A stretch of 42,665 bases of DNA from Cellulomonas rhizosphaerae. GTDB taxonomy: Bacteria > Actinomycetota > Actinomycetes > Actinomycetales > Cellulomonadaceae. A program made the translations under genes and the position numbers. Under the pieces are notes generated by a model. The model worked only from the letters and a program-made list of their open reading frames with translations. It was not told the DNA's origin and searched no databases. Positions 4,871 through 42,665 of this stretch are shown piece after piece; positions within the stretch are counted from its first letter, which is position 1; every line of letters begins with the position of its first letter. The DNA is taken from NCBI RefSeq assembly GCF_003470205.1, contig NZ_QWKP01000208.1, forward strand, positions 1-42,665. Reading direction: 5' to 3'.

Positions 4871-4953
4871 TGCGAACCCGGGACGCAAGTAATTCGGCGA
4901 GCAGGTGTTTGCGCACGCCTCGGGCGGCGGAACCGTGCGCAATGACCTGTTCG

Positions 4954-5604: not shown

Positions 5605-5641
5605 GGTGTCTCGGTTCTGTGGAGCGGGTAGGGGACGCCGC

Positions 5642-5676: not shown

Positions 5677-5686
5677 CAGTGCGTGA

Positions 5687-6622
5687 TCAGTCGAGCAGGT
5701 CCGCGTAGAGGATCGTCGACAGGTAGCGCTCGCCGAACGACGGGATGATCGCGACGATCAGCTTGCCCGCGTTCTCGGGACGCTCCGCCAGCTGCTTGGC
5801 GGCGTAGAGCGCGGCGCCCGACGAGATGCCGACGAGCAGGCCCTCCTCGGCGGCGGCGCGACGGGCGTAGGTCACGGCCGTCTCGGCGTCGACGTCGATG
5901 ACCTCGTCGTACACCGTGGTGTCGAGGATCTCTGGCACGAAGTTGGCGCCGATGCCCTGGATCTTGTGCGGGCCGGGCTGGCCACCGTTGAGGATCGGCG
6001 ACTCGGCCGGCTCGACGGCGACGATCTGGATGCCGGGCTTGCGCTCCTTGAGCACCTGGCCGACGCCCGTGATGGTGCCGCCCGTGCCGATGCCGGCGAC
6101 GAGGATGTCGATCTCGCCGTCGGTGTCGGCCCAGATCTCCTCGGCCGTCGTCCTGCGGTGGATCGCCGGGTTGGCCTCGTTGGCGAACTGGCGGGCCAGG
6201 ATGGCGCCCGGGCGCTCGGCGACGACCTCGTCGGCCTTGTTCACCGCGCCCTTCATGCCCTCGGAGGCGGGCGTGAGGATGAGCTCGGCGCCGAAGGCGC
6301 GCAGCAGGGCGCGGCGCTCCTTGGACATCGACTCGGGCATCGTCAGGACGACGTCGTAGCCGCGTGCCGCGCCGACGAAGGCCAGGGCGATGCCGGTGTT
6401 GCCCGACGTGGCCTCGACGATCGTGCCGCCGGGCTTGAGGTCACCCGACGCCTCGGCGGCGTCGATGATCGCGACGCCGATGCGGTCCTTGACCGAGTTG
6501 GCGGGGTTGTAGAACTCGAGCTTGCCGACGACCGTCGCGGGGGCGCCGTCGGTGATCTTGTTGATGCGGACCAGCGGGGTGTTGCCGACCAGCGCGGTCG
6601 CGTCGTCGTAGATGCGTGCCAT
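5687..6622 (-). CDS. cysK: Cysteine synthase A (O-acetylserine sulfhydrylase)
   Basis: A 311-residue fold-type II PLP enzyme that converts O-acetylserine and sulfide to cysteine. It starts [20 protein letters not shown]; Lys45 in [11 protein letters not shown] is the PLP Schiff-base lysine, TSGNTGIAL is the substrate loop, and [10 protein letters not shown] binds the PLP phosphate. The ATG at 6622 has GAGGAA 3-8 nt upstream; longer in-frame sequence is not conserved. It forms a unit with cysE downstream. The 395-bp upstream region holds a Cys-rich leader peptide and hairpins, implying cysteine-dependent control by attenuation. Confidence 0.96.
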
Positions 6623-6784
6623 GGTTCCTCTTCGGTCGAGCCGCCGTCGACGACGGCGTGCGGGGGACTGCCTGACGGGTGCCGCGTCCCGGGTGGGAGT
6701 GGCGTGGTGGGGGACCCTCACGCGATGGCGAGGGACGGGGCGAGCACTGGCGACGGCGCCCGCCCGGTCAGGGGCTGCGCGCGT

Positions 6785-6799
6785 GCTGGAGCGGCCAGC
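6785..6799 (-). other. Hairpin immediately after the leader-peptide stop
   Basis: On the minus-strand transcript GCTGG and CCAGC form a 5-bp stem with loop CCGCT, 4 nt after the leader stop codon. A second small hairpin (GCCGTC/GACGGC with a GTC loop) lies just before the cysK ribosome-binding site. Ribosome stalling on the leader's Cys codons could change which structures form. The structures are read by eye, not computed. Confidence 0.35.
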
Positions 6800-6802
6800 G
6801 CT

Positions 6803-6874
6803 CTACAGACAGCGACAACAGGGCGCGAGCAGGGCGCGCGGGGAGGTGGCGGGGGCGGCAGTGTGCACGCGCAT
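6803..6874 (-). CDS. Cysteine-rich leader peptide upstream of cysK (attenuator)
   Basis: A 23-codon ORF beginning ATG CGC GTG CAC and ending APCCRCL-stop, preceded by a strong GGAGGA 8 nt before the ATG. Three Cys codons (TGT TGT CGC TGT) sit just before the stop. It lies about 180 nt upstream of cysK on the same strand with inverted repeats between. Poly-Cys leader peptides are known cysteine-responsive attenuators in mycobacteria, and similar leaders precede sulfur-assimilation genes in other actinobacteria. Here the proposed logic is stalling at Cys codons when Cys-tRNA is scarce, opening cysK-cysE expression. Attenuation is inferred; the ORF, SD and Cys codons are seen directly. Confidence 0.75.
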   Translation of the reverse strand: MRVHTAAPATSPRALLAPCCRCL

Positions 6875-7016
6875 CGCTCGAGTCCTCCGAGACCGGGGTG
6901 GTCGGATGCGGCCGTGGGTACGGACCGCGATCGACCCTGACGCTAGCCGCAACGCCGGGGGGTGCGCAAAGCATCCCCACCAGGCGGACGCCCGCGGGTG
7001 ACCAGCGGGAACGACG

Positions 7017-7046
7017 AAGGCCCGCACCCGAACGGGTGCGGGCCTT
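7017..7046 (-). terminator. Intrinsic terminator of the PASTA lipoprotein gene
   Basis: A perfect 13-bp stem (AAGGCCCGCACCC paired with GGGTGCGGGCCTT) with a 4-nt loop starts 16 nt after the stop codon of the minus-strand lipoprotein gene. The descending strand ends CCTT followed by a T-containing run. It also insulates the cysK leader from upstream transcription. Confidence 0.85.
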
Positions 7047-7061
7047 GCGCAGCGATCAGCT

Positions 7062-12634: not shown

Positions 12635-15097
12635 TCAGTGCCGGGTGCGACGTGCCAGGTGAACCCCCGTCGCTCCGAGGACGAGCAGCGCGCCTGCGAG
12701 CAGCCCGAGCGGGAGCACCTCGCTGCCAGTCGTCGGCAGGTCGCCGGGCGTCGGTGGCGCCGTCGATGTCGGAGTGGGAGTGGGAGTGGGCGTCGTCGGC
12801 GTGGGTGTCGGTGTCGGCGTCGGCGTCGGTGTCGGTGGGATCACGGCGGGTCGGACCGTGATCGTCACCGTCGCGTCGTCGCACAGTACGGGGGTGCCGT
12901 CGTCGCACACGATCACGTCGAACGTGTCCGTGCCCACGAACCCGGCGTCCGGCGTGTACGTGTACGTCCCGTCCGGCCGGACGGCCGCCGATCCGTGGCT
13001 CGGGGCTCGCAGCGCGGTGACGGTCAGGGTCTGTCCGACGTCGGGATCGGAGGTCTCGACCGTGCCCGCGACCGCGCGACCCTCGGTCGTGCTGACCGCG
13101 TCGTCCTGCGCGACCGGTGGAAGGTTGCTCGGGGGTGCGACGGTCACCGTGACCTGCGCCTGGGCGCACACGTCCGGGTCCTGGGTCGAGCAGATCTGGT
13201 AGTCGAACGTGTCCTGGCCGGTGAAGCCCGGATCGGGCGTGTAGACGACCTGTCCGTCGCCCGTGACGACCACGCCCCCGTTTGCGGGTGGGGTGGTGAT
13301 CGTGGGTGGCGCGACCATCCCTCGGTCGTTGTCGACGATCGGGATCTGCACCGGCGTCCCCGGTGGGGTCGTCGCGGCGTCGTCGCGCGCGACCGGCAGG
13401 ACGTGGATCGTGACCGTCGCCGAGTCGCACAGCCGCGGCACGCCGTTGTCGCAGACCTGGTACGTCAGAGTGTCCGTCCCCGTGAAACCGCGAGCGGGGA
13501 GATAGACCGTCGTCCCGTCCGGTCGGACCGTGGCGCGCCCGTGGTCGGGTCCGTCGGTCATCGTGTACGTGAGCTGTTGGTTCTCGTCGTCGTCGACGGC
13601 CGTGAGCACGCCGTTTACGGGAACGTTCACGCGAGTGGTGACCGTGGCGTCGGGCGCACGCGGGGGAGTGTTGTCCGGAAGGTCAGGCACGACGATCGTG
13701 CGGACCCTCGCTGCCGGGGACGTGCCGTTGTTGTTCGCGGGCTCCGGGTCCGCAGTAGCGGACGTGCCGGAAGCGACGTCGGTGAGGATGCCGCTGGCCG
13801 GCGCGGTCCCGCTCACCGTGAGCGTGCGGGTCTCGCCGGCCGCGACGGTGCCGAGGTCCCACGTGGCGTCCGACGCGTCGACGGTGCCGGGCGCGGACGC
13901 GACCGGGTCGACGAGGCTCGCCGGGATCGTGTCCGAGACCACGACGTCTGCCGCGTCGTCCGGACCGACGTTCGTGACCGTGATCGTGTACGTGACGGGA
14001 GCGCCGGCCAGGACGAATGCGGGCCCGGTCTTGGAGACCGCGAGGTCGGCGGACTTCGCGGTCGGCACGGGCAGGGTCGCGCACGACTCGGGTGCGTACC
14101 CGATCTCGGGTGGCGTGACCGTGCCGGCCACGACGTTGATCGTCGTGCCGCTGCTCTCGTCGAAGATCGGCCCGGTCCGCGTGGTGTCGTCGACCACGAT
14201 CGGCTCGGCGGCCGAGGATCCGGTGAAGCTGCCCTGGTTCGTCGTCTGCGCCGTGAAGCGGTACTGGCCGAAGCCGGTGACCGCCCCGTCGTTGCGCAGG
14301 CTGGCACCCGTGGTGATGCCGGGGGTCGTCTGCGACCAGCCGGCGTTGTTCGTGAGGTCGCCGTTGATCTCGATGACGCCCGTGTTCAGCGCCGTCCCGT
14401 CGTTGAACATCGACGACTCGGCGCGCAGGACGCAGGCGTTGGTCAGGGACGACCCCGCGTTGATCTCGACGAGGCCGGTCGTCACCAGCAGACCCGAGTT
14501 GTCGACATCGCCGTCGGAGGCGAACGAGCCCGCGACGCGCATGACCCCGGAGTTGTCGGCCGACGTGCCCGAGTTGAGCGTCAGCTGGGCGAAGTTCGCG
14601 GTGCCCTCGTTCACGAAGGAGGTGCCAGCGGAGAGGGTCATCTCCGACGTGACGTTCCATGTGCCTCCCGCACGGTTCACGAGCACGGCGGCGCCGTTGG
14701 TGTTCAGCCCCGAAGCGATCGTCACCCGGCCGGAGCTGTCGAGCATGAACCCGGTGCTCGTGCTGAGCCCTGGGAGAGTGACCGTGCCCTGGCTGAGCAC
14801 GTGCCCGGCAGCGTTGTTCATGTACGCCGGTGCGAAGGTGGCGCCGGCGGCGACGCAGACCGCGGCGCCCTCGTCGAACGCGTTGAGGCCGCCGGTGTAC
14901 GTCCCGGCCACCAGGAGTGCGACGTCACCGGAGTGCAGGCTCACGGAGGCGTCGGACGACGCGCTCAGCGTCACGGTCGGGGCCGCGCACTCCGACGCGT
15001 AGTCGCCCGTCGGTTCGGCGAGTACGGGGGCCGCGACGGACGCGGCAAGGACGGTGGTCGCGGCGACGAGTGCCGCACGGCGCATCAACGGATACAA
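12635..15097 (-). CDS. Sortase-anchored surface protein with DUF11 and tandem Ig-like domains
   Basis: An 820-residue wall protein: signal peptide (about 1-27), an Asn/Thr/Ser/Gly-rich, repetitive stalk-like region (about 30-340), a DUF11 domain (SADLAVSKTGPAFVLAGAPVTYTITVTN, about 350-460), three Big_9/cadherin-like repeats each ending with a YTPDAGFVGTDTFDVIVCDD-type motif (about 480-760), a Thr-Pro linker, LPTTG at about 786-790, a hydrophobic helix and a RRTRH tail. This is the classic sortase sorting signal. The TTG at 15097 has GAGGGG 5 nt upstream, better than the ATG at 15085, whose SD would be 17 nt away. Probable adhesin or matrix component; ligand unknown. Confidence 0.9.
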   Translation of the reverse strand: MYPLMRRAALVAATTVLAASVAAPVLAEPTGDYASECAAPTVTLSASSDASVSLHSGDVALLVAGTYTGGLNAFDEGAAVCVAAGATFAPAYMNNAAGHVLSQGTVTLPGLSTSTGFMLDSSGRVTIASGLNTNGAAVLVNRAGGTWNVTSEMTLSAGTSFVNEGTANFAQLTLNSGTSADNSGVMRVAGSFASDGDVDNSGLLVTTGLVEINAGSSLTNACVLRAESSMFNDGTALNTGVIEINGDLTNNAGWSQTTPGITTGASLRNDGAVTGFGQYRFTAQTTNQGSFTGSSAAEPIVVDDTTRTGPIFDESSGTTINVVAGTVTPPEIGYAPESCATLPVPTAKSADLAVSKTGPAFVLAGAPVTYTITVTNVGPDDAADVVVSDTIPASLVDPVASAPGTVDASDATWDLGTVAAGETRTLTVSGTAPASGILTDVASGTSATADPEPANNNGTSPAARVRTIVVPDLPDNTPPRAPDATVTTRVNVPVNGVLTAVDDDENQQLTYTMTDGPDHGRATVRPDGTTVYLPARGFTGTDTLTYQVCDNGVPRLCDSATVTIHVLPVARDDAATTPPGTPVQIPIVDNDRGMVAPPTITTPPANGGVVVTGDGQVVYTPDPGFTGQDTFDYQICSTQDPDVCAQAQVTVTVAPPSNLPPVAQDDAVSTTEGRAVAGTVETSDPDVGQTLTVTALRAPSHGSAAVRPDGTYTYTPDAGFVGTDTFDVIVCDDGTPVLCDDATVTITVRPAVIPPTPTPTPTPTPTPTTPTPTPTPTSTAPPTPGDLPTTGSEVLPLGLLAGALLVLGATGVHLARRTRH

Positions 15098-32387: not shown

Positions 32388-33676
32388 CCTTCGGACCCTC
32401 GCAGGGGGCCCTCGACGTCTCGCGCTACGAGCTGGAGCTGGACTACCGGGTCGTAGGGAACAGGCTCGACGCCCGGGCGCGCGTGCACGGGGTCGCGCGG
32501 CGGCACCTCGACCGGTTCTCGCTCGACCTCGCGGGGCTGCGCGTCAGCCGCGTGCTGCTCGACGGCAGGCGGCCCGAGCGGTGGACGCACCGCGCGGGCC
32601 AGCTGACCATCCGCCCCGGCGGCGTGCTGGCGCCGGGCGCGCCCGTCGTCGTCGAGGTGCACTACACGGGCAACCCGCGGCCGATCCGCGGGCCGTGGGG
32701 CGAGGTCGGCTGGGAGGAGCTCGCGGACGGCGTCATCGTCGCGGGCCAGCCCGACGGCGCGCCCTCGTGGTTCCCGTGCCAGGACCACCCGGCCGACAAG
32801 GCCTCGTTCGGCATCGTCGTCACGACCGACGCCGGGTACGAGGTCGTGTGCAACGGGTCGCTCGTGTCGCGCACGGCGCGCTCGAGCCGGGTGCGCTGGG
32901 AGTTCGACCAGCCCGAGCCCACCGCTCCCTACCTCGCGACCGTGCAGATCGGGCGCTACCAGCGCTGGGTCAGCGCGGCGGGTCCCGTGCGGCAGGAGGC
33001 GGCCGTGCCCGCGCGGCTGCGGGCGGCGTTCGAGCACGACTTCGCGCGGCAGCCGCAGATGTTCGAGGTCTTCGAGGAGCTGTTCGGGCCGTACCCGTTC
33101 GCCGGGTACACGGTCGTCGTGACCGACGACGACCTCGAGATCCCGCTCGAGGCGCACGGCCTGTCCATCTTCGGCGCGAACCTCGTCGACGGGCACCGGG
33201 GCGCCGAGCGGCTCGTCGCGCACGAGCTCGCGCACCAGTGGTTCGGCAACAGCGTGACGGCCTCGACGTGGCAGGACATCTGGCTGCACGAGGGCTTCGC
33301 CTGCTACGCGGAGTGGCTGTGGTCGCACGCGTCGGGCGGACGGACGGCCGACGACCAGGCGCGCACGGCCCACACACGCCTGGCCGGGCTGCCCCAGGAC
33401 CTCGTCGTGGGCGACCCCGGGCCTGAGCTGATGTTCGACGACCGGCTCTACAAGCGCGGTGCGCTGACCCTGCACGCGCTGCGCCGGACGGTCGGGGACG
33501 ACGCGTTCTTCGCCACGCTCCGCGCATGGACCGCGCAGTTCCGGCACGGCAGCGTGAGCACCGCGCAGTTCGTCTCGCTCGCGTCGGGGATCGCCGGGCG
33601 GCCGCTCGACGCGCTGTTCGACGCCTGGCTCTACGCGGCGCCGCTGCCCGCGCTGCCGAGCGCCGTCACGGCCTGA
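32384..33676 (+). CDS. M1 family zinc metallopeptidase (compact form)
   Basis: A 430-residue gluzincin aminopeptidase-like protein. The zinc motif is H280-E-L-A-H284 with the third ligand E303 (HELAHQWFGNSVTASTWQDIWLHE), complete. It has the N-terminal beta domain (about 1-190) and catalytic domain but lacks the long C-terminal helical domain of PepN/ERAP enzymes. The GxMEN substrate motif is replaced by PLEAHGLS. Translationally coupled to the Pls-type synthetase by ATGA, so it may trim, mature or detoxify that product; it could also be a general peptidase. No signal peptide is seen. Confidence 0.92.
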   Translation: MTFGPSQGALDVSRYELELDYRVVGNRLDARARVHGVARRHLDRFSLDLAGLRVSRVLLDGRRPERWTHRAGQLTIRPGGVLAPGAPVVVEVHYTGNPRPIRGPWGEVGWEELADGVIVAGQPDGAPSWFPCQDHPADKASFGIVVTTDAGYEVVCNGSLVSRTARSSRVRWEFDQPEPTAPYLATVQIGRYQRWVSAAGPVRQEAAVPARLRAAFEHDFARQPQMFEVFEELFGPYPFAGYTVVVTDDDLEIPLEAHGLSIFGANLVDGHRGAERLVAHELAHQWFGNSVTASTWQDIWLHEGFACYAEWLWSHASGGRTADDQARTAHTRLAGLPQDLVVGDPGPELMFDDRLYKRGALTLHALRRTVGDDAFFATLRAWTAQFRHGSVSTAQFVSLASGIAGRPLDALFDAWLYAAPLPALPSAVTA

Positions 33677-34226
33677 CCTCGCGCACGACGACGGCCGCGC
33701 CGACCGGGGCCGCGACCGCGCCCAGGTGACCGGGCGGGTCCATGTCGTGCAGCTCGCACGCGGCGACCTCGGGCGGCGCGGCGACGACCTGGCCGGCGCT
33801 GATCGTGACGCGCCGCGGGTCGAGGGTCAGGCCGAGGCCGGACGCCTTGAGGACCGCCTCCTTGCGCACCCAGGCGCGCAGCCGTCCGTCGGCGGTCGGC
33901 GCGTGCTCGTCTGGCGACAGGGCGACCTCGTCGAACCCGGGCCACAGCTCGTCGCGGCGGTGCTCGAGGTCGATCCCGACCGGGCTGTCGAGCGATGCGG
34001 CGACGGCGACCACGCCGGTCCCGCGCGTGATCGAGACGTGCGCGCCCGTCGTCGTCGGGGCGCCGTGCGCGGCGCTGCCGCAGGTGGGGCAGCGGCGGCC
34101 GACGACGACGTCGGCCGGGTCGACGCCCCGCACGTGGGCCACGGCGCGACGGGCCAGCTCGGAGGCCTCGTCGGGCGCACCGGGCGTCACCCGCGCCCAC
34201 CAGACCAGCACCCGCGACTCGCTCAC
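33666..34226 (-). CDS. 4'-phosphopantetheinyl transferase (Sfp type)
   Basis: A 186-residue enzyme that moves phosphopantetheine from CoA to carrier-domain serines. Motifs: GRRCPTCGSAAHGAP near residue 45, VSITRGTGVVAVA, VGIDLEH (Mg-binding Asp and Glu) and WVRKEAVLKASGLGL (the KEAxxK motif). It is short for Sfp but complete across all motifs. GTG start with AGGATG upstream. It converges on the M1 gene with an 11-bp overlap, and is placed to activate the carrier domain (Ser528) of the neighbouring synthetase. Confidence 0.9.
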   Translation of the reverse strand: MSESRVLVWWARVTPGAPDEASELARRAVAHVRGVDPADVVVGRRCPTCGSAAHGAPTTTGAHVSITRGTGVVAVAASLDSPVGIDLEHRRDELWPGFDEVALSPDEHAPTADGRLRAWVRKEAVLKASGLGLTLDPRRVTISAGQVVAAPPEVAACELHDMDPPGHLGAVAAPVGAAVVVREVRP

Positions 34227-34336
34227 GCGGTCATCCTGCCGTGGTCCGCCTCGGAACACGTCGGACCGGTCACGGCGTTAGGGTCGCTGGAGGCCGCCCG
34301 GACGGGGCGGTCGACGATCGACGAGGGATGTGTGGC

Positions 34337-35353
34337 GTGTCAGGTGTGACGGCGGCCGGTCTGACGGTCGGCTATGCGGCGGCGCTCGAGCAGTTCCCGC
34401 CCATGGAGGCGGTCGAGCTCTCGGCGTACGCGGAGCAGCACGGGTTCTCGGGCGTGATGGCGGCCGACCACTACCAGCCGTGGGTGCCCGCGCAGGGCGA
34501 GGCGTCCTTCGTCTGGAACGTGCTCACCGCGCTCGGCGAGCGCACGTCCGGCGACATCGGGCCCGGCGTCACCGCGCCGACGTTCCGGTGGCACCCGGCG
34601 ATGGTCGCGCAGGCGTCGGCGACGCTCGCCGCGATGTACCCCGGGCGGCACTGGCTCGGGCTCGGCTCGGGCGAGGCGCTCAACGAGCACATCACCGCGC
34701 AGTACTGGCCCGAGGCGCCCGAGCGCATCAACCGGATGTTCGAGGCCATCGACATCATCAAGAAGCTGTTCTCGGCCTCGCTCGCGGGCAAGGACGTCAA
34801 GCACGCGGGGCAGTTCTACAAGCTCGAGTCGACGCGGCTGTGGACCATGCCCGAGGTGGCGCCCGAGATCCTCGTCGCGACAGCCGGGCCGGTGACCGCC
34901 AAGCGGGCCGGGCGGCACGCGGACGGGCTCATCACCGTCGGCGCGCCGCTCGAGAAGATCAGCGGGCTGTTCGGCAAGTTCGAGGAGGGCGCGCGCGAGG
35001 CCGGCAAGGACCCGTCGTCGATGCCCAAGGTGCTGCAGGTGCATCTGTCCTGGGCGCCGACCGACGAGGAGGCGCTGGCCAACGCGATGCACCAGTGGCC
35101 CAACGGCGGCATGAAGTTCCCCAAGGGTGACATCCGCACGCCGTTCGACTTCGAGCAGATGGCCAAGCTCGTCCGGCCGGAGGACTTCGAGGGCCGCATG
35201 GTCATCTCGTCGGACCCGGACAAGCACCGCGCCGACCTGCAGAAGTACGTCGACCTCGGCTTCGACCGGATCTACCTGCACAACGTGGGGCGCAACCAGC
35301 GCGAGTGGATCGAGACGTTCGGCGCCGAGGTGCTGCCGAAGCTCGTGCGATGA
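34337..35353 (+). CDS. F420-dependent glucose-6-phosphate dehydrogenase-family oxidoreductase
   Basis: A 338-residue luciferase-like enzyme of the TIGR03557/FGD group, which reduces F420 with a hydride from a sugar phosphate or related donor. Seen: [67 protein letters not shown], and [20 protein letters not shown]. The GTG at 34337 has GAGGG 9 nt upstream; the ATG at 34328 abuts the SD. It overlaps cofE by ATGA, so F420 use and F420 polyglutamylation are co-expressed. Whether the donor is really glucose-6-phosphate is not certain. Confidence 0.88.
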
Positions 35354-36117
35354 GCTTCGAGGTCTGGGCCCCGTCGGGCCTGGGGGAGATCGCCGCGGGC
35401 GACGACCTCGTGGTGCTGCTCGCCGGGCTGCTCCGGTCCGACCCTCACGGGCTCGAGGACGGCGACATCCTCGTGCTGACCAGCAAGGTCGTGTCCAAGG
35501 CTGAGGGGCGTTCGGTCTCGGCCGACGACCGCGAGCAGGCCATCACCGACGAGACCGTACGCGTCGTCGCGACCCGCGAGCATCCCGGCGGCGTGACGCG
35601 CATCGTGGAGAACCGCCTCGGGCTCGTGATGGCCGCGGCCGGTGTCGACGCGAGCAACACGCCCGTGGGGACCGTGCTGCTGCTGCCGGTCGACCCGGAC
35701 GGCAGCGCCCGCGCGCTGCGAGCCGGGCTGTCCGCCGCGTTCGGGGTGCGGATCGGCGTGATCGTCTCGGACACCGCCGGCCGGCCCTGGCGGCAGGGGG
35801 TCACCGACATCGCGATCGGCGCGGCGGGCGTCGTCGTGCTCGACGACCTGCGCGGCCAGCACGACTCGTTCGGCCGCCCGCTGGTCATGACCGTGGCCGC
35901 GGTGGCCGACGAGGTCACCGCCGCCGCCGAGCTCGTCAAGGGCAAGGCCGACGGCCGGCCGCTCGCCGTGGTGCGCGGGCTGGCGCACCTCGTGACGGCG
36001 GACGACGGCCCCGGTGCCGCGGCGCTCGTGCGGCTCGGGCCCGAGGACATGTTCGCGCAGGGCAGTGCCGAGGCGTACGCACAGGGGTGGAAGGACGCGC
36101 TCGAGGAGCGCGCGTGA
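35350..36117 (+). CDS. cofE: Coenzyme F420-0:L-glutamate ligase
   Basis: A 255-residue GTP-dependent enzyme that adds gamma-linked glutamates to F420-0. Signature segments are [80 protein letters not shown] (GTP and metal site), and the [25 protein letters not shown] end. It equals the N-terminal half of FbiB; the nitroreductase-like C-terminal domain is absent, so it is a stand-alone CofE. Linked by 4-bp overlaps to the upstream F420 enzyme and the downstream GH3 gene. cofD (fbiA) is not in the window. Confidence 0.94.
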
Positions 36118-37307
36118 GCTCGCGGCGGGCGCCGTGGGTGACGCTCGGGGTCGTCGTGACCCTGGGTGCGGCGGTGCTCGCGGTGTGGTTCGCGCGGCCG
36201 ACGGGTGCCCCGGAGGCGGCGCCGACGCCCGCCCCCACGCCGACCCCAACGCCCACTCCGTCCGCAGACCCGTGGGCGGGCTGGTCGCTCGAGCAGCAGG
36301 TCGGGCAGGTGTTCATGGTCGGCGTGAGCGTGAGCGACCCGAAGGCCGTGAGCACCGCCGCGATCCGCGACGACCACGTGGGCAACGTCTTCCTGCAGGG
36401 CCGTACGACGGCCGGCGCGGACGCCGTGCGCTCGCTGGTCGACTCGTTCACGGCCCTCGTCGGGCCGGAGAGCACGCACTCGACGCCGCTGCTCGTGGCG
36501 ACCGACCAGGAGGGCGGCGAGGTCCAGGTGCTGCGCGGACCGGGCTTCTCGACGATCCCGTCGGCGCTCGAGCAGTCGTCGCTGCCGGCCGCGGACCTGA
36601 GAGCCCAGGCGTCGACGTGGGGAGCCGAGCTGGCGGCAGTCGGGGTCAACCTCGACCTCGCGCCCGTGATGGACCTCGTCACCGGGAACCCCGCGTCCAA
36701 CCCGCCGGTGGGTGCGCTCGACCGGTCCTACGGCTTCACCGCGGACTCGGTCACGACGCACGCGAACGCGTTCAGCGCGGGTCTCTCGTCGGCCGGGGTC
36801 GGGGTCTCGATCAAGCACTTCCCGGGGCTCGGGCGGGTCACGGCCAACACCGACGACACCGCGGGCGTCACCGACTCGGTGACCACGCGCGACGATCCGT
36901 CGGTGGAGGTCTTCAAGGCCGGGATCGCCGCGGACCCGATGTCGGTGATGGTCTCGACCGCGATCTACAGCCGCATCGACCCCGACAAGCCCGCGGCGTT
37001 CTCGTCGACCGTGGTGACCGGGATGCTGCGCGGCGACCTGGGCTACGACGGGCTCGTCGTGACCGACGACCTGTCGGGCGCGAAGCAGGTCGCGGCGTGG
37101 AAGCCCGGCGACCGGGCGGTGCTCGCGCTGCAGGCCGGCGTGGACCTGGTGCTCGTGTCGAAGGACCCGACGGTCGCGCACGAGATGGTCGCCGCCGTGC
37201 TCGACCGCGCGCGCACCGACCCGGCGTTCGCCGCGCAGGTGCGGACCGCGGCGCAGCGCGTGCTGGTCGCGAAGGGCCAGTGGCCGCCGGTCAGCCCTGC
37301 GCCGTGA
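36114..37307 (+). CDS. Glycoside hydrolase family 3 (NagZ-like, membrane-anchored)
   Basis: A 397-residue protein: an N-terminal membrane anchor (about 7-26), a Pro/Thr linker, then a single GH3 catalytic barrel starting [27 protein letters not shown] and [17 protein letters not shown] match the KH and substrate loops; the catalytic nucleophile is in [10 protein letters not shown]. The canonical NagZ acid/base dyad D-x-H after KHFPGHG reads N-T-D-D here, so catalysis may differ or the substrate may be other than GlcNAc-anhydroMurNAc. GTG start overlapping cofE by 4 bp. Likely acts on cell-wall saccharides outside the membrane. Confidence 0.87.
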
Positions 37308-37662
37308 TCTGCGCCGACTGACCCGTCGCGCCGGGCTCGCCGCCCGGGATCGGCTCGGCGATCACCGCCGTGCCGTACGCACACACCTCGGCGAACTGGC
37401 CGATGGAGTTGGTGTCGAACCGCATCGCGATGATCGCGTTCGCGCCCCGCGTCTGGGCCTCGGTGACCATCCGGTGCATCACCTCGTGGCGGCTCTGCGT
37501 GACGATCGACGTGTACTCGGGGATCTCGCCGCCGCCGATGGAGCGGATTCCCGCGGTGAAGCTCGTGCCGAAGTTCGTCGAGCGCACCGTGATCCCCATG
37601 ACCTCGCCGAGCACGGCCTGGATGCGGTAGCCGGGCAGGTCGTTCGTCGTCACCACGATCAT
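37291..37662 (-). CDS. YbjQ/UPF0145 (heavy-metal-binding-like) protein
   Basis: A 123-residue protein of the YbjQ family, MIVVTTNDLPGYRIQAVLGEVMG then NFGTSFTAGIRSIGGGEIPEY and GANAIIAMRFDTNSIGQFAEVCAYGTAV. It forms beta-alpha pentamers; function is unsettled. It lies 17 bp downstream of the HhH-GPD gene and its end overlaps the convergent GH3 gene by 17 bp. The start is set by the conserved N-terminus; no good SD is visible. Confidence 0.9.
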   Translation of the reverse strand: MIVVTTNDLPGYRIQAVLGEVMGITVRSTNFGTSFTAGIRSIGGGEIPEYTSIVTQSRHEVMHRMVTEAQTRGANAIIAMRFDTNSIGQFAEVCAYGTAVIAEPIPGGEPGATGQSAQITAQG

Positions 37663-37679
37663 GGGTGCGATCGTGCCAT

Positions 37680-38252
37680 CTACTGCGCCTTGGCCGCGGC
37701 CTTCTTCGCCTGCTTGAACTCGCGGACCTTCTGCAGCGACGCCTCGTCGACCACGTCGGCGACCGATCGGTACCCCTCGAGCGCGTAGTCGCCCGCCGCG
37801 GCCTCCCAGCCGTCGGGTCGCACGCCCAGCTGCTTGGCGAGCAGCGCGACGAAGATCTGCGACTTCTGCTTGCCGAAGCCCGGCAGCGCGGTGAGGCGGT
37901 TGAGCAGGTCCTTGCCCGACGTCGCCTCCGTCCACAGCCGTGTGGTGTCGCCGTCGTAGTCGTCGCGGATGATCCGGGCCAGCTCCTGCAGCCGCGCGGC
38001 CATGGCCGCCGGGTAGCGGTGGATCGCCGGGGGAGTGCTGCAGAGGGCGACGAACTCCTCGGGGTTCGCCGCGGCGATCTCCCGCGGGTCGAGGTTTCCG
38101 AACCGGGTGAGGACCTTCCACGGCCCGCGGAACGCGTGCTCCATGCCGTACTGCTGGTCGAGGAGCATCCCGACGAGCGGCGCGAACGGCTGCTCGTCGA
38201 GGACCTTGTCAGCTGCCGCGTCGTTGGCGATCCCGAAGCCCATGGGGCTCAT
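37680..38252 (-). CDS. HhH-GPD family base-excision DNA repair protein
   Basis: A 190-residue DNA glycosylase-like protein with the helix-hairpin-helix and GPD region, QPFAPLVGMLLDQQYGMEHAFRGP at the start and LTALPGFGKQKSQIFVALLAKQLGV in the middle. The first 14 codons fall in the 40-bp repeat, so this gene's 5' end is the insertion site of the island to its right. Two ATGs (38252 and 38243) are possible; both lie at the island junction, and the upstream region of this gene was replaced by island DNA. Its former upstream neighbour is probably the hypothetical gene at 41206. Confidence 0.88.
   Translation of the reverse strand: MSPMGFGIANDAAADKVLDEQPFAPLVGMLLDQQYGMEHAFRGPWKVLTRFGNLDPREIAAANPEEFVALCSTPPAIHRYPAAMAARLQELARIIRDDYDGDTTRLWTEATSGKDLLNRLTALPGFGKQKSQIFVALLAKQLGVRPDGWEAAAGDYALEGYRSVADVVDEASLQKVREFKQAKKAAAKAQ
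38212..38251. repeat. 40-bp direct repeat, left copy (attachment-site candidate)
   Basis: A perfect 40-bp match to 41164-41203, covering codons 1-14 of the HhH-GPD gene. It marks the left end of a 2,952-bp insert. No further copy was seen inside the window. Confidence 0.85.
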
Positions 38253-38293
38253 GCTCGCATGTGCGTTCCACACCGGGGCAGCCGCACTGACTC

Positions 38294-38677
38294 CTAGATG
38301 CGTGCCACCCACGACCTTGCTCGAGCGCGACCTTCCTGGTCGTTCGACTTGCGCGTCGTCCACATCTCCGTGACCTCGGCTGTTCCGCACTCGCGGGCGC
38401 CTTCGTACATGAACAGCCGGCTCCCGACCACTACGTCGACCCAGAACGGCGGGTACAGGGGCAGGAGGACCGCGCGGGCGCTCTCACCCGGTGCCAGCGT
38501 GGCTGGATTCAGTACGAGCACTGGTGCGCCACCGACGGTGTCGGGATCGGGAACCGCGATCGACCAGTTCGGGCGGAAGTCGCCCTCACGCTCGGCGACG
38601 ATCACGCTCGCGCGTCCGCCGTCTTCCGTGCGCCGCAGGGTTAGGTCGACTGCCACAAGTAGTTGCCCGAACTCCAT
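38294..38677 (-). CDS. Stand-alone EF-Tu domain III-like beta-barrel protein
   Basis: A 127-residue protein with the layout of the C-terminal EF-Tu barrel: DLTLRRTEDGGRASVIVAER near the start (like FxxxxYxLxxEEGGRxxP), FRPNW, TLAPGESARAVLLPL (PGE strand) and VGSRLFMYEGARECGTAEVTEMW (FxLREGxRxxGxGxVT). No G domain is present, so it cannot bind GTP. The ATG has GAGGTG 7 nt upstream. It lies inside the island. Small EF-Tu-D3-like proteins are annotated in actinobacteria without a role; acting as a decoy or sensor of phage attack on EF-Tu is only speculation. Confidence 0.65.
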   Translation of the reverse strand: MEFGQLLVAVDLTLRRTEDGGRASVIVAEREGDFRPNWSIAVPDPDTVGGAPVLVLNPATLAPGESARAVLLPLYPPFWVDVVVGSRLFMYEGARECGTAEVTEMWTTRKSNDQEGRARARSWVARI

Positions 38678-38679
38678 CG

Positions 38680-38912
38680 TTACGCACCTCGCTGGTCGAG
38701 TAGCATGCCTAAAAGAAGTGCAAAGGAATCATCGTAAGTAGCTGGTTTGCGGTGGGGACGCCAGTGAGCCAGAGTGTCATGGTCTGATTCTGGCAGTCTC
38801 AACCTTTGACGTGTTGAGACAAGCACCTCGTCGTCGAGACGCGGCTCGGCGTGGTGCTCCGGCGTCGAGATCCGTCGAAGAGCGCGCGACGTCCGATGAG
38901 GTACTTCAACGG
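38680..38912 (-). other. Gap with a gene remnant and an inverted repeat
   Basis: No complete gene. A minus-strand frame ending at 38680 reads YDDSFALLLGMLLDQRGA-stop, close to the DEQPFAPLVGMLLDQQYG segment of the HhH-GPD protein but with A/T-rich codons; it stops 2 nt before the EF-Tu-like ATG. GTCTCAAC (38796-38803) and GTTGAGAC (38813-38820) form an 8-bp stem, possibly a weak terminator for the HEPN gene. Confidence 0.4.
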
Positions 38913-39476
38913 CTAGCCGACGACGCGGAGCCAGTCGCGAACTCGAATCTCCATACGCTCGACATCTGCGTCTGTGAGTGTGCCGGTGTGGGCTAGTGCC
39001 CGCCTCGTTCGGTTTAGTTCCTCGAAATAATAGTTGACCCACGCTTGATCGCCAAGCAGTGGCTCGAAATGCTGCCACTGGCCGACGATGATATCGCCGT
39101 ACTGTGGAAAGTCGACGTACGCGAGCAGGGACTCCCCTCGGGGTCCGTGCCAACGAGCCTTGTGATCGTCCACCTGGCGCTTCTCCGCGATCTTCCTGAT
39201 TGCCAGGTCCACGCCGTTGGTCCACCACTTGTCGACACCAAACGCCTCGCGGAGCGTCGCCTCGACGAGTTCTCGGATGGAGTTTTCCAGGCAATACAGC
39301 AGTTCGTACACTCGACCCATTGATTCGGCCTGTGTGCGCGCCTCTTCGGAAAACTGCTCGATCGAGCTCCGCCCCTCAATGGTCACGGCTCCGGCGGCGA
39401 CGTCGATGCCCAGGTGTCGGTTCGTCGCCATTGCGCGGAACAAAAAAGCTTGTAGGTCGCGTTCAGTCTCGCTCAC
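38913..39476 (-). CDS. Swt1-type HEPN domain protein (candidate RNase effector)
   Basis: A 187-residue protein. The HEPN_Swt1-like domain spans about residues 55-187: VYELLYCLENSIRELVEATLREAFG, WWTNGVDLAIRKIAEKRQ, FPQYGDIIVGQWQHFEPLLGD and YYFEELNRTRRALAHTGTL. The R-x4-H motif of HEPN ribonucleases is RRALAH. The GTG start overlaps the DUF5343 stop codon by 4 bp (GTGA), so the two are co-translated. HEPN RNases are common toxins in toxin-antitoxin and abortive-infection systems. RNase activity is inferred from the intact motif; the target is unknown. Confidence 0.8.
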   Translation of the reverse strand: MSETERDLQAFLFRAMATNRHLGIDVAAGAVTIEGRSSIEQFSEEARTQAESMGRVYELLYCLENSIRELVEATLREAFGVDKWWTNGVDLAIRKIAEKRQVDDHKARWHGPRGESLLAYVDFPQYGDIIVGQWQHFEPLLGDQAWVNYYFEELNRTRRALAHTGTLTDADVERMEIRVRDWLRVVG

Positions 39477-40102
39477 GTGAGGTGCGCCTTGAGGCTCTTG
39501 AAGATCGCGTCGTAAACGGCTACGTCGGTAGACAACGGAAGGTGGACGTGGATGTCGTGCCGCAAGGATATTTGCCCCGGGTGAGCCTCGAACTTCTGCT
39601 GGGTGCTCGATGACGTTGCCTCGCCAGCATCGTCCAACTCGAGTTCGCCTACAAATTCGGGCTCGACGGAACCGACCATGGCGGTCGAGAAGTCGGCGAG
39701 GTCAGCGAGCGTTTTGAATGTCGAAGCCATCTTTGTGGTGACTGAAGTGCCCTTGTCCGAGAGGCGTGAGAACATCCCGTTCAACTCATTGATCGAACGT
39801 GTGTGGGCATCAGTGTCGATCGCGAAGACATCCTTGTATGCCGTCCGGAGTGACGTTGCCAAGACAGAGCGGGATAACGCGGGGTCCTTATAGTCGCGGT
39901 AGCGGGACGTCGGACGCCCACCCGCGTCGAGCAGGCCGAGTGCCTTCATGACAGAGATCATGGGACGGTCGGAGGAGCTCGCGTACCCCAGCTGCTTCAG
40001 AAACTCGTAGGTGAACGTCTCGGGCACGGCGGCCTTCTGGAGCGCACCCAGAATCCCGGCCGTGTTCCTTGTGCTTGTGAGGTACGCGCTAGGCAGGCTC
40101 AT
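39473..40102 (-). CDS. DUF5343 domain-containing protein
   Basis: A 209-residue protein matching DUF5343: MSLPSAYLTSTRNTAGILGALQKAAVPETFTYEFLKQLGYASSSDRPMISVMKALGLLDAGGRPTSRYRDY and then LSRSVLATSLRTAYKDVFAIDTDAHTRSINELNGMFSRL, a helical, winged-helix-like N-half. The C-terminal 60 residues after a Ser/Thr-rich break form a separate beta-rich part. The ATG lies 6 nt after a TACTGT -10 box and has no SD, implying a leaderless transcript. It precedes the HEPN gene with a 4-bp overlap and is the likely antitoxin, regulator or sensor partner. Confidence 0.8.
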   Translation of the reverse strand: MSLPSAYLTSTRNTAGILGALQKAAVPETFTYEFLKQLGYASSSDRPMISVMKALGLLDAGGRPTSRYRDYKDPALSRSVLATSLRTAYKDVFAIDTDAHTRSINELNGMFSRLSDKGTSVTTKMASTFKTLADLADFSTAMVGSVEPEFVGELELDDAGEATSSSTQQKFEAHPGQISLRHDIHVHLPLSTDVAVYDAIFKSLKAHLT

Positions 40103-40751
40103 GTCCAGACAGTAAAGGACTGAGGCGTCGGCCGTCTGCGTCTTGTCTGGAAATGATCCGGCCCGGCCCGGCCGGTCGGTCGGGCGGGCGCGCGTGTGGA
40201 ACGGCGTGATCACTCCCGGCCGCTACCTCCGAGACGCGCTGCCGTGCTGCCCCACGTCCGAGCGCCAGCCATGCAGGAGCTCCGCGAACATCTCCCGCTC
40301 GATCTGCTGGTCGTCGAACATCTCATACCGCGAAAGTGCGACGACGTGCTCGTCCCTGATTCCACTGGGTCGGACTAGCAGATCCGGCCTCCCCGTCGCC
40401 ATTGCGGTCAGACCCTGACCGATCCCAGGGGTCGACAAGCTTGCTCGCGACCCAATCGCGGAGGCACCGACGTGACGTTTGCGCCAGTGCCTCGGCCAGG
40501 GCGGCATGCGCCAGACGTCGGCTGACGTCGATGGCACCGCTCGCTCTCAGGACGAAGATTCTCTCGACGGCTGGCGAACCCTGCGTTCGAGGAGCACGCC
40601 TAAAGGAGGGGGACAGAGCGATCCACGTCTCTTCATGCGTCGCGGGCCGGACCAACATGCATGGGCAGTAGGCCCAGGTGAGCCGCAGGCGCGGCATCGG
40701 CGCCTGGCGCACTTGCCCCCACCGCGGGGAAGTGCGCACCGCGGTGAGCGA
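40103..40751. other. Island stretch without a confident gene
   Basis: About 650 bp. A minus-strand reading frame, 40402-40223, encodes a possible 59-residue protein starting MATGRPDLLVRPSGIRDEHV and ending SRR; it has AGGG 10 nt upstream but no family match. Another frame (VERIFVLRASGAIDVSRRLAHAALAEAL and on, about 40640-40420) looks coding but breaks off. I read this as the remains of one or two disrupted genes. Confidence 0.4.
40104..40151 (-). promoter_or_regulatory. Promoter and inverted repeat of the DUF5343-HEPN operon
   Basis: TACTGT (minus strand, 40114-40109) is a good -10 placed 6 nt before the ATG; no clear -35 is present. Perfect 8-bp inverted repeats, TCCAGACA (40104-40111) and TGTCTGGA (40144-40151), are 40 bp apart centre to centre, about four helical turns. 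One arm overlaps the -10 and start, which suits autorepression with DNA looping. Confidence 0.45.
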
Positions 40752-41150
40752 TCACACGGCGGGCGGATGATCTCCGTGCAGGCGACGGCGAAGCCATGGC
40801 CACCAGCGCGGCCATGCTCGTTTCCACTCGTTCGCGAAGATCTCGTTCGCGATCTCACGCGGATCCTCGGGCGCGCCTTCATAGCCACGACTCGACGCAT
40901 AGTCATGGAGGCGGGCGCGAAGGAACTCGGGATCTCTCGTTCCACCCTTCTCGAGGCGCACGTCGCCGTCGCTCTCGTCTCCGACGACTGCAGTCAGTCG
41001 CGCGCCGTCGAGGCCGATGAAGACCTCGTACTCACCGTCGGCCACATCGGCGGCCTCGACCCATCGCTGCGCTTGTATGGGGGACTTGAACAGGAGGATG
41101 CCGTCTCTCGCGAACACGAAGACCGGGTCCAGGTGTTGTGAAGGCTCCAT
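40752..41150 (-). CDS. Hypothetical 132-residue island protein
   Basis: MEPSQHLDPVFVFARDGILLFKSPIQAQRWVEAADVADGEYEVFIGLDGARL then TRDPEFLRARLHDYASSRGYEG and a Trp/Arg-rich end (WKRAWPRWWPWLRRRLHGDH). The first half resembles small proteins annotated as hypothetical near toxins; I do not recognise a family. The ATG at 41150 has no SD. An in-frame TTG at 41204 would add 18 residues, 14 of them from the 40-bp repeat (the HhH-GPD N-terminus), so translation may now begin in the duplicated host sequence. Confidence 0.6.
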   Translation of the reverse strand: MEPSQHLDPVFVFARDGILLFKSPIQAQRWVEAADVADGEYEVFIGLDGARLTAVVGDESDGDVRLEKGGTRDPEFLRARLHDYASSRGYEGAPEDPREIANEIFANEWKRAWPRWWPWLRRRLHGDHPPAV

Positions 41151-41163
41151 GGTCAACGATCTT

Positions 41164-41203
41164 GCTGCCGCGTCGTTGGCGATCCCGAAGCCCATGGGGC
41201 TCA
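41164..41203. repeat. 40-bp direct repeat, right copy (attachment-site candidate)
   Basis: Identical to 38212-38251. It lies 2 bp from the end of the hypothetical gene at 41206, the gene that probably preceded the HhH-GPD gene before insertion. Codons read from this copy run in frame into the 132-residue island protein. Confidence 0.85.
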
Positions 41204-41205
41204 AC

Positions 41206-41547
41206 CTACCGGCGGACCTTCCATTCGTCGGGGTGGCCGTTCCACCAGTGCACGCCGGCGTCGTTACGGATGAGAGTGTCGAAGAGGCTCCCGAGCGGCT
41301 CGCCGAGCTCGAAGCTGAGGATCTCGTCGACGACGCCGTCGATTGTCCAGTCAGGCTCGACGGCGCGGCGCAGGCCCAGCAGCACGTCGCCGTACAGCGG
41401 CTGCCGGTAGACGAGGCAGAACACGTCGTCAGGCTCAGCCCAGGCCTCCACGACCTCCGTCACCAGATTGGAGTCGCCCCACGGCACCTGTCCTGCTCCG
41501 GCAACAACGCGCCCGAGAACTTCTCGCGCCCGCGTCGATCCACTCAT
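41206..41547 (-). CDS. Hypothetical 113-residue protein
   Basis: MSGSTRAREVLGRVVAGAGQ to GVHWWNGHPDEWKVRR, with a DVLLGLRRAVEPDWTIDGVVDEIL segment. The ATG has AGGAG 5 nt upstream, good support for a real gene. The stop codon is 2 bp from the right 40-bp repeat, whose ATG starts the HhH-GPD-like reading frame, so this gene and the HhH-GPD gene were probably adjacent (13 bp apart) before the island entered. Family unknown. Confidence 0.7.
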   Translation of the reverse strand: MSGSTRAREVLGRVVAGAGQVPWGDSNLVTEVVEAWAEPDDVFCLVYRQPLYGDVLLGLRRAVEPDWTIDGVVDEILSFELGEPLGSLFDTLIRNDAGVHWWNGHPDEWKVRR

Positions 41548-41641
41548 CGCGCTCCTGACTCGGCTGCGGGCTGGTGCGTTCAGCGGCTCAGTTCCTAGTC
41601 GTGGCATTGTCCCTCGCCCGGGACAGGTGAGAATCGTCGTC

Positions 41642-42298
41642 GTGACCTCGGAACCTGCTGTTGGGCGATGGATCGTCGTGGTGCCCGTCAAGGTCGCGAC
41701 AGCCGGGAAGTCACGGTTGTCGGGGGTGCTCGACGACAGGGTGCGGGCCGCGCTGGTGCGGGCGATGGCGCTCGACACGATCGACGCGGCGCTCGCGGCC
41801 TCGGCGGTCGGGCACGCGCTTGTCGTGACCGCAGACCCCGAGCTGCGGGGTGCTGCGGGGCGCTTCGGGCTGGTGGACGAACCACCCCTGGTGCCCGGCG
41901 TCTCGCCCCTCGATGCCGCGGTCCTGGCGGGCGTTGCGGCCGCACGCTCCCGGGTTCCCGGGGTGTCCGTGGCGATGCTGCTCGGAGACCTCCCGGCCCT
42001 GCGCCCTGACGACCTGGATGCCGCGCTCGACCTGGCCGCCGCCATGCCCCTCGGCTTCGTCGCCGACGCCGGGGGGACCGGGACGACGATGCTCACGGCG
42101 TTCGGGGGAGCGGATCCGAATCCGCACTTCGGCGTGGGTTCGGCGGCGGCGCACACGGCTGCCGGCCACGTGCCGCTCGCGGCGCCCGGGTCGTCGAGCC
42201 TGCGTCGGGACGTGGACCTGCCGGCTGACCTCGACGAGATCGCGCGGCTCGAGCTGGGGGTGCGGACGGGGCCGTTGCTCGCGCGGTTGCGCGGTTGA
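41642..42298 (+). CDS. cofC: Phospholactate/phosphoenolpyruvate guanylyltransferase (F420 biosynthesis)
   Basis: A 218-residue nucleotidyltransferase-fold enzyme of the CofC/FbiD family. It activates 2-phospho-L-lactate, or phosphoenolpyruvate in mycobacteria, with GTP for F420 assembly. Motifs: VVVPVKVATAGKSRLSGVLDD (nucleotide loop), VALLVTADPEL-like HALVVTADPELRG, VAMLLGDLPALRPDDLDAAL and GTGTTMLTAFGGADPNPHFGVGSAAAH. The GTG at 41642 has AGGTGA 8 nt upstream. It is divergent from the hypothetical gene at 41547. Which phosphate donor it uses cannot be read here. Confidence 0.9.
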   Translation: MTSEPAVGRWIVVVPVKVATAGKSRLSGVLDDRVRAALVRAMALDTIDAALAASAVGHALVVTADPELRGAAGRFGLVDEPPLVPGVSPLDAAVLAGVAAARSRVPGVSVAMLLGDLPALRPDDLDAALDLAAAMPLGFVADAGGTGTTMLTAFGGADPNPHFGVGSAAAHTAAGHVPLAAPGSSSLRRDVDLPADLDEIARLELGVRTGPLLARLRG

Positions 42299-42337
42299 CG
42301 TTCTCCACAGGCAGCCCGCTGTGGTGTCAGTGGTCGG

Positions 42338-42353
42338 TCGTACAGTTGTTCGA
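42338..42353. promoter_or_regulatory. Near-consensus LexA (SOS) box
   Basis: TCGTACAGTTGTTCGA differs at one position from the actinobacterial SOS box TCGAAC-N4-GTTCGA. It lies 37 bp upstream of the DUF222-type gene. Some 13E12-family genes of M. tuberculosis are LexA-controlled, which supports the call. Confidence 0.6.
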
Positions 42354-42389
42354 GTGAGGGCGGTTGGCTTCGGACGACGAGGAGGGGCG

Positions 42390-42665
42390 ATGGGTCTGCC
42401 GGGTGGGTTTGTGGAGTCCAGTCGTGCCGCGACCGCGGGTGGCTCGTTGCCTGCGGTCGATCCTGATCCGATCGTGCTGCCTGCTGATGCTTATGAGGCG
42501 TCGCCCGGCCGGGTGGTGCCGACGTTCCCGGTGCGGGCGACGTTGACGCAGGTCGCGGGCCTGCTCGAAGGGCTGGACCTGTCGTCGTTGTCGACGGCGG
42601 AGCTGGTCGAGGTGGCGGCGGGCTGGGCGCAGGCCGCCGCGATGGTGGCGGCCCGGCAGGCTGAG
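42390..42665 (+). CDS. DUF222 (13E12-type) HNH endonuclease family protein, N-terminal part
   Basis: The first 92 codons of a gene running off the right edge. The segment LTQVAGLLEGLDLSSLSTAELVEVAAGWAQAAAMVAARQAE is the usual start of DUF222 proteins, which mostly carry a C-terminal HNH nuclease domain (outside the window). The ATG has GGAGGGG 3-9 nt upstream. These genes occur in many near-identical copies in actinobacterial genomes. An SOS box precedes it. Confidence 0.75.
   Translation, partial: MGLPGGFVESSRAATAGGSLPAVDPDPIVLPADAYEASPGRVVPTFPVRATLTQVAGLLEGLDLSSLSTAELVEVAAGWAQAAAMVAARQAE

What the first reader, a model, noticed from the sequence alone, without database searches (positions are those of the whole stretch)
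38212..41203. A 2.95-kb island framed by a perfect 40-bp direct repeat at the start of a DNA-repair gene
The same 40 bp occurs at 38212-38251 (codons 1-14 of the HhH-GPD gene) and 41164-41203. The gene that probably preceded it (41206) now sits beyond the island, and the HhH-GPD reading frame is intact on the left, so integration was neat and gene-preserving, as with site-specific recombination. The cargo is accessory (HEPN, DUF5343, orphan proteins) and no recombinase is present.
Basis: partly seen in the sequence, partly recalled or inferred. Interest (0 to 1): 0.8.

Follow-up and report, generated by a model that had tools for sequence, protein, structure and literature searches.

The report
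Gene cassettes stacked in repair gene
The island looks like the worn remnant of a string of small foreign gene packets, one with candidate anti-virus genes, of a kind that repeatedly slots into the very start of one DNA-repair gene in actinobacteria and usually gives that gene a new beginning, an apparently undescribed way of collecting genes.

Summary
The 40-bp repeat is real but does not frame the insert. Against two empty-site relatives (G047, G011) the foreign DNA is about 38266-41626, next to CofC; the 41206 gene and the right repeat copy lie inside it. Cargo includes a DUF5343+HEPN pair (PADLOC candidate defence system PDC-M34). A decayed second HhH-GPD start also lies inside (38692-38780), ending at codon 29/30 (GACCAG).

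That junction recurs. In Cellulomonas, Isoptericola and further actinomycetes, small inserts without a recombinase sit upstream of HhH-GPD; each leaves a truncated HhH start. In six of nine family genomes the gene has received a foreign promoter and first 29 or so codons, with the switch at GACCAG. One distant family has arrays of up to eight truncated starts and cargo shared between genomes.

I infer gene cassettes moved in trans by a site-specific recombinase. A 6.8-kb element with a large serine integrase sits at the same codon in G546, and phage Bxz2's serine integrase is reported to use a mycobacterial glycosylase gene. The enzyme is not shown. The window's own array is rearranged: its HhH-GPD start is native, and the origin of the 40-bp repeat is unresolved.

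The parts
37680..38243 (-). HhH-GPD base-excision repair gene, the target; native 5' end here (98% to G047 over an 84-nt 5' stretch, 94% over the body)
   Evidence: PF00730
38212..38251 (-). left copy of the 40-bp repeat (start of the HhH-GPD gene)
38266..41626 (.). whole insert relative to the empty site in G047 (about 3.36 kb)
   Evidence: blastn against G047: 32795-38265 and 41627-42661 align; against G011 34252-38244 and 41630-42298
38294..38677 (-). orphan ORF, 127 aa, proposed cargo of the proximal cassette
   Evidence: no Pfam or PADLOC match
38692..38780 (-). decayed HhH-GPD 5' end of the MTLWLTG type (89 nt, frameshifted), preceded by CTGCCAGAATC as in a G059 fragment
   Evidence: best of ten fragments compared is G059 fragment 1, 101 matching positions in 140-nt stretches
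38680..38697 (-). junction: core GACCAG (38697-38692), then CGAGGTGCG and a stop TAA (38682-38680) three codons after the core, as at other junctions
38913..39476 (-). HEPN protein, PADLOC PDC-M34B (1.6e-111)
39473..40213 (-). DUF5343 protein, PADLOC PDC-M34A (5.8e-71, from residue 38)
40752..41204 (-). orphan ORF overlapping the right repeat copy; a likely real start is ATG 41150
   Evidence: no Pfam or PADLOC match
41164..41203 (-). right copy of the 40-bp repeat: truncated native-type HhH-GPD start, inside the insert
41206..41547 (-). orphan protein, 113 aa; absent from the G047 and G011 stretches, so probably cargo and not the ancestral neighbour
41627..42298 (+). conserved flank: CofC-like gene (ORF 41468-42298; homology to G047 from 41627), the ancestral neighbour
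   Evidence: PF01983

Best explanation
The 5' end of this actinobacterial HhH-GPD gene is an integration site for small gene cassettes. A cassette carries one to a few cargo genes and, at one end, a promoter plus about the first 29 codons of HhH-GPD. Recombination at codon 29/30 (core GGNATGNTNCTNGACCAG) places the cassette inside the gene: the old 5' end is left behind, truncated and often closed by a stop codon, and the gene body is joined to the cassette's promoter and 5' end, so it stays intact. The joined gene again presents the same core, so cassettes can stack. These steps are read from sequence comparison. The window holds a decayed, rearranged array of this kind with perhaps two or three cassettes, one carrying the candidate defence pair PDC-M34 (inferred from the internal relic and two empty relatives). 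The recombinase is not in the cassettes and is supplied in trans; a large serine integrase is my first guess (inferred).
For: Empty sites in G047 and G011. Truncated HhH starts upstream of the gene in 5 of 69 HhH-bearing genomes of the genus (81 searched), with no further copy elsewhere at E 0.001; in 4 of 69 HhH-bearing genomes of the 79 family genomes searched (a fifth, G111, was dismissed); in 8 of 178 HhH-bearing genomes of an order sample of 392, four of them new. In six of nine family genomes the left-behind fragment is closer to the host's relatives than the joined start is, and against one chosen native relative each the switch lies at GACCAG: left of it fragment/native 0.76-1.0, full/native 0.58-0.75; right of it 0.21-0.38 and 0.88-1.0. 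Joined starts of G021 (Cellulomonas) and G133 (Isoptericola) are 83% alike in DNA over 84 nt. Family f36 has stacked arrays; a shared cargo stretch is 94.1% identical between G686 and G826 where the HhH region is 74.0%. 19 of 42 junctions have a stop exactly 3 codons after the core; 0 of 74 full genes have one within 10 codons. No tyrosine recombinase and only one serine recombinase (G546's) in 1.77 Mb of these loci; the profiles recovered 20 of 20 and 7 of 7 left-out members.
Against: In G000, G059 and G140 the joined gene has a native-like 5' end, which simple insertion at codon 29/30 does not give; G142 supports the swap only weakly (fragment 0.70-0.76, joined start 0.60-0.63 to relatives). 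The window's 40-bp repeat stops at codon 11, not at the core, and the native start expected next to CofC is missing. No recombinase for the cassettes was identified; G546's element leaves a different right end (new start ATG TGG TGC). The sequence right of the core varies between cassettes.
Confidence: 0.72

Rival explanations
1. Accretion of decayed integrative elements (CIMEs): each segment was once a complete mobilisable element with its own integrase that integrated at the HhH-GPD site, lost its integrase and transfer genes, and was followed by the next.
For: G546 carries an intact-looking element with serine integrase, HTH_17 protein, relaxase, NikA-like and Rep proteins at the site, next to a 0.66-kb segment. 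Tandem accretion of this kind is described (passages of PMC5704250). OrfA with a regulator gene in G056, G059, G141 and G142 could be residue of a common backbone.
Against: Segments are small (about 0.5-2.6 kb outside family f36) and hold cargo genes, with no integrase remnant by profile (ORF pieces under 60 aa were not scanned). Each carries a HhH start that restores the gene, which the G546 element does not. In f36 cargo is shared between arrays of different genomes.
Confidence: 0.2
2. Ordinary homologous recombination: DNA with a HhH 5' stretch recombines anywhere in the roughly 90-bp homology, and the fixed codon-29 junction is only the inherited end of an ancestral insert.
For: About 90 bp of homology exists, and native-like joined starts in G000, G059 and G140 suggest homologous exchange at least there.
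Against: In G021, G075 and G142 the joined start differs from the native relative up to the base before GACCAG, in G133 up to about ten bases before it; random crossovers would spread.
Confidence: 0.12
3. One reading: one island moved by site-specific recombination with the 40-bp repeat as attachment sites and 41206 as the ancestral neighbour.
For: Perfect 40-bp repeat, intact HhH-GPD gene, no recombinase.
Against: Insert boundary at 41626, not 41203; 41206 absent from the empty-site relatives' locus; junctions in relatives lie at codon 29/30; an internal relic shows more than one event.
Confidence: 0.05

Closest known systems
Integrons and their gene cassettes (general knowledge; PMC8618304 seen only in a listing)
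   Same: Arrays of small recombinase-less segments stacked at one chromosomal place, with varied cargo.
   Different: The recombination site is the coding 5' end of a DNA-repair gene, renewed at each insertion; no integrase in the stretches read around the arrays; cargo strands are mixed.
CIMEs and tandem accretion of ICEs and IMEs (PMC5704250, passages)
   Same: Integrase-less modules bounded by attachment sites, stacked at the end of one gene.
   Different: Modules here are often gene-sized, carry the gene's 5' end and promoter, and recur with shared cargo across genomes.
Serine integrase of phage Bxz2, attB in Msmeg_5156 (PMC9262239 and PMC2884959, passages)
   Same: Integration inside a gene called putative DNA glycosylase; MSMEG_5156 stands beside Rv1156 under DNA repair in a table of PMC3625197 (passage). 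That it is the same HhH-GPD family is recalled, not tested.
   Different: Bxz2 carries its integrase; its attP and attB share only 4 bp, whereas cassette and target here share the whole left side of the site.
Elements that enter the 5' end of a gene and supply a new one, such as SXT in prfC (recalled, no call)
   Same: New promoter and start supplied by the element; old 5' end left behind.
   Different: SXT is a large self-transmissible element with its own integrase; here small stacked segments without one.

Membership tests
Integron | IntI-type tyrosine integrase gene next to the array | tested here: not met
   Profile from 20 tyrosine-recombinase domains of the genus: no hit at E 0.1 in 83 loci, 1.77 Mb, including six f36 arrays with flanks. 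The rest of the genomes was not covered; all 81 genus genomes hold PF00589 proteins somewhere.
Integron | attC sites with folded R'/R'' boxes at cassette ends | not tested
   The conserved repeat is coding HhH-GPD sequence; folding was not computed.
Integron | cassettes mostly in one orientation behind one promoter | tested here: not met
   ORFs on both strands in the f36 arrays (home-made gene caller).
CIME / tandem accretion | module bounded by two attachment sites and lacking integration genes | tested here: met
   HhH starts on both sides of segments; no recombinase by profile. Transfer genes were not searched for separately.
CIME / tandem accretion | derived by decay from an ICE or IME with the same specificity | tested here: inconclusive
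   An IME sits at the same codon in G546, but its right end differs and no decay intermediates were seen.
Large serine integrase system | cassettes are recombined by a large serine integrase at the HhH core | not testable with these tools
   Such an integrase (Resolvase 4.4e-15, Recombinase 5.8e-15, Zn_ribbon_recom 5.6e-08) is present in G546; its action on cassettes needs an assay.
PADLOC candidate system PDC-M34 | adjacent M34A (DUF5343) and M34B (HEPN) genes | tested here: met
   5.8e-71 and 1.6e-111, ORFs overlapping by 4 bp. Defence activity is untested.

The most novel reading that the evidence does not exclude
An integron-like gene-capture system spread over several families of actinomycetes in which the coding start of a DNA-repair gene is the recombination site: each incoming cassette replaces the promoter and first 29 or so codons of the gene and recreates the site, giving arrays of defence, toxin-antitoxin-like, regulatory and transport genes assembled by an enzyme acting in trans.
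Probability: 0.5. Interest if true: 0.9.

Novelty: new variant of a known kind. Interest (0 to 1): 0.78.

Why it matters
If right, one conserved repair gene works as a dock for gene cassettes across actinomycetes, a group where integrons are rarely reported (recalled). It gives a simple signature (truncated HhH-GPD starts ending at GACCAG) for finding undiscovered defence genes, and makes two questions testable: which recombinase moves recombinase-less cassettes, and whether swapping promoter and N-terminus changes the repair gene's activity.

Tried and rejected
Simple 40-bp attachment-site model: contradicted by the empty-site alignment.

Chance matches: the motif right of the core (YNTTARCCACNNNNTATCRCYGCAGNTCA, up to 3 mismatches) hit 4 of 81 genus genomes, all at HhH junctions, reversed control 0. 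A shorter form hit 31 of 221 family genomes and the reversed control 13; 7 of the 31 are HhH junctions, the others that were returned as loci were not. The exact form found 5 stretches in genome contigs, of which Hymenobacter L107 has no HhH start and is taken as chance. The class-level pattern hit 28 of 355 genomes, and its reversed control hit more genomes than that (over 60 by my count of the table), so a match alone means nothing; of 9 of the 28 examined, 6 (all family f36) were HhH arrays and G638, G673, G285 were not; the other 19 were judged from the matched letters only.

Control for 5' duplications: of 667 ORFs in the same loci 8 had an upstream same-strand partial copy at 1e-6; one is HhH-GPD of G056, seven are low-complexity or paralogue-like. 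This control is insensitive: it recovered only one of the four other genus genomes with known fragments.

Recombinase search: the first motif scan gave hits that I judged spurious and missed the real serine integrase of G546, which lay in the scanned sequence; it was replaced by the profile scan.

Nothing in phages, plasmids or IMG/VR for the cassette ends or OrfA. G546's integrase has 457 phage and 21 plasmid relatives, all under 60% identity. G111: stray match, not HhH. G470's third match, E 0.009 on another contig, was not looked at. G024 (7.9 kb between CofC and HhH-GPD) has no truncated copy and was not counted. Kitasatospora, Nonomuraea and Tsukamurella: HhH gene without extra starts in the stretches read. 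OrfA has no significant Pfam match and was not modelled. Ten paper searches listed nothing that by title or abstract describes such arrays; PMC12161575 was seen in the listing only; preprints and most subscription papers are not held.
Full report
Observation. The two 40-bp copies at 38212-38251 and 41164-41203 are identical. The HhH-GPD gene (37680-38243, minus strand) is intact. The island carries a HEPN gene and a DUF5343 gene overlapping by 4 bp that match PADLOC's candidate defence pair PDC-M34B and A at 1.6e-111 and 5.8e-71, plus orphan ORFs without Pfam match. What 'phage defence candidate' means was seen in passages of PMC11514479; defence by this pair is untested.

Empty site. Of 81 genus genomes 69 have the HhH-GPD gene. 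The closest, G047 (99% protein identity) and G011 (91%), have it next to a divergent CofC-like gene, without the cargo and without the 41206 gene in the stretch read. G047 aligns to the window at 32795-38265 and 41627-42661. The insert is therefore about 38266-41626, the right repeat lies about 0.4 kb inside it, and 41206 is part of it.

Recurrent truncated starts. Copies of the HhH start lie upstream of the gene in G021 (1), G059 (2), G075 (2), G056 (1) and in the window. A profile search of all 81 genomes finds extra copies at E 0.001 only in these five genomes and only there. Of 79 of the 140 other family genomes, 69 have the gene and five a second match: G133, G140, G141, G142 (genus g8) and G111, which is not HhH.

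The window's relic. At 38692-38780 lies a start of the MTLWLTG type, foreign to this lineage, whose own start reads MGFGIANDAA. It is one base short (frameshift), is preceded by CTGCCAGAATC, and ends at GACCAG, then CGAGGTGCG and TAA. Its best match among ten fragments is G059 number 1, promoter included.

Where the exchange happens. In six of the nine family genomes with cassettes the left-behind fragment is closer to the host's relatives than the start now joined to the gene. G056 is clearest: fragment 100% and body 98% to G057, joined start 77%; G142 is weakest. Against one chosen native relative each, fragments match left of GACCAG (0.76-1.0) and not right of it (0.21-0.38), full genes the reverse (0.58-0.75 and 0.88-1.0). 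In G021, G075 and G142 the joined start differs from the native one up to the base before GACCAG; in G133 up to about ten bases before; in G056 a 39-bp identical stretch leaves the point open. Joined starts of G021 and G133, from two genera, are 83% alike in DNA over 84 nt and 92.5% in protein over 40 residues, some of them right of the core. In G000, G059 and G140 the joined start is native-like. Homologous exchange after insertion, or cassettes carrying a native-like start, could explain this; neither is shown.

Cargo in the family. G133 AIPR (9.9e-42); G059 a CAP12/Pycsar TIR protein (2.7e-13) and a protein without family; G141 an ORC-CDC6-like ATPase (8.3e-13), with a like protein in G142 by eye; G140 DUF4265 (5.8e-25); G075 and G021 no match over cut-off; G056 a sub-threshold Abi_C match. 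In PADLOC, of ten such proteins the TIR protein matched PDC-S35 (6.1e-10) and two ATPases only weakly (4.2e-3, 1.8e-3); the AIPR protein was not given to PADLOC. G056, G059, G141 and G142 also have a small conserved ORF (OrfA) at the core, with an HTH regulator beside it (Pfam for G141 only; by eye otherwise, G056's broken); OrfA matches in 5 of 221 family genomes, all at HhH-GPD, in G140 only its end.

Wider spread. In an order sample of 392 genomes (178 with HhH starts) eight have two matches, four of them new: G366, G424, G546 (family f7) and G470 (f19), with spacings of 0.49-0.66 kb; G366 and G424 share one insert. A class-level pattern search (28 of 355 genomes, not specific by itself) led to six genomes of family f36 with stacked starts: G826 eight upstream of the gene over 28 kb, G686 four, G868 three, G787 three, and in stretches without the full gene G875 seven and G819 four, two of them short. 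Spacings reach about 7 kb. The repeat runs from the promoter to GACCAG. Of 90 ORFs called there by my own script, 69 were scanned: short-chain dehydrogenases (7), RecG-C/AlbA_2 types (4 and 3), response regulators (3), NYN (3), one PglX-like protein, IS transposases and others; only 25 of 80 Pfam, 25 of 57 PADLOC and 25 of 56 PHROG families were displayed. A dehydrogenase stretch is 94.1% identical over 510 bp between G686 and G826 while their HhH region is 74.0% over 588 bp.

No recombinase in the cassettes. Profiles built from 20 tyrosine-recombinase domains of the genus and 7 serine recombinases were run on 14,761 ORFs from 83 loci (1.77 Mb, the window included): no tyrosine hit at E 0.1 and one serine hit, G546's own; left-out members were recovered 20 of 20 and 7 of 7. 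An earlier motif scan was unreliable. Genomes elsewhere hold recombinases: all 81 of the genus have PF00589.

Mechanism. Over 42 junctions the left side of the core is strongly conserved; 19 have a stop exactly three codons after GACCAG, against 0 of 74 full genes within ten codons. I infer a site-specific recombinase acting in trans. In G546 a 6.8-kb element with relaxase, NikA-like, Rep, HTH_17 and a 512-aa large serine integrase sits at the same codon, and phage Bxz2's serine integrase uses Msmeg_5156, a putative DNA glycosylase listed beside Rv1156 (passages only). That Msmeg_5156 belongs to the same HhH-GPD family is recalled. A tyrosine recombinase is not excluded, since cassette and target share the whole left half of the site.

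The 40-bp repeat. The right copy follows 41206 as HhH starts follow cargo in other cassettes, so it may be the end of a 41206 cassette; or it may be a remnant of the native start. The data do not decide, and the native start expected beside CofC is gone.

Verdict. The window shows a degenerate example of a recurrent, apparently undescribed kind of cassette stacking at a repair gene. The general pattern is well supported; the enzyme and the history of this copy are not.

Noticed in passing
L199 (G546 C20), reverse complement about 227-7061: 6.8-kb mobilisable element with large serine integrase, HTH_17, relaxase, NikA-like and Rep inserted at HhH-GPD codon 29; the gene restarts with ATG TGG TGC.
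   Followed up: partly
next to the junction core in G056, G059, G141, G142 (L108, L046, L142, L143): Conserved small ORF (OrfA, about 147 aa, no family) beside the core with an HTH-type regulator gene; in the family searched, found only at HhH-GPD.
   Followed up: partly
family f36 arrays: L200-L205, L209-L228: Long arrays with related cargo (short-chain dehydrogenases, RecG/AlbA-like, Fic-like by eye) in different genomes.
   Followed up: partly
L222 (G787 C425), about 13462-13822: A second, start-less HhH-GPD-like body (45% identity, 4.4e-18) downstream of the full gene.
   Followed up: no
L090 (G024), upstream of HhH-GPD: About 7.9 kb of transporter-like genes between CofC and HhH-GPD without a truncated start; a different kind of insertion or rearrangement.
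   Followed up: no
upstream of HhH-GPD starts in many loci: A -10-like box lies a few bases before the ATG, suggesting leaderless transcripts; seen by eye only.
   Followed up: no
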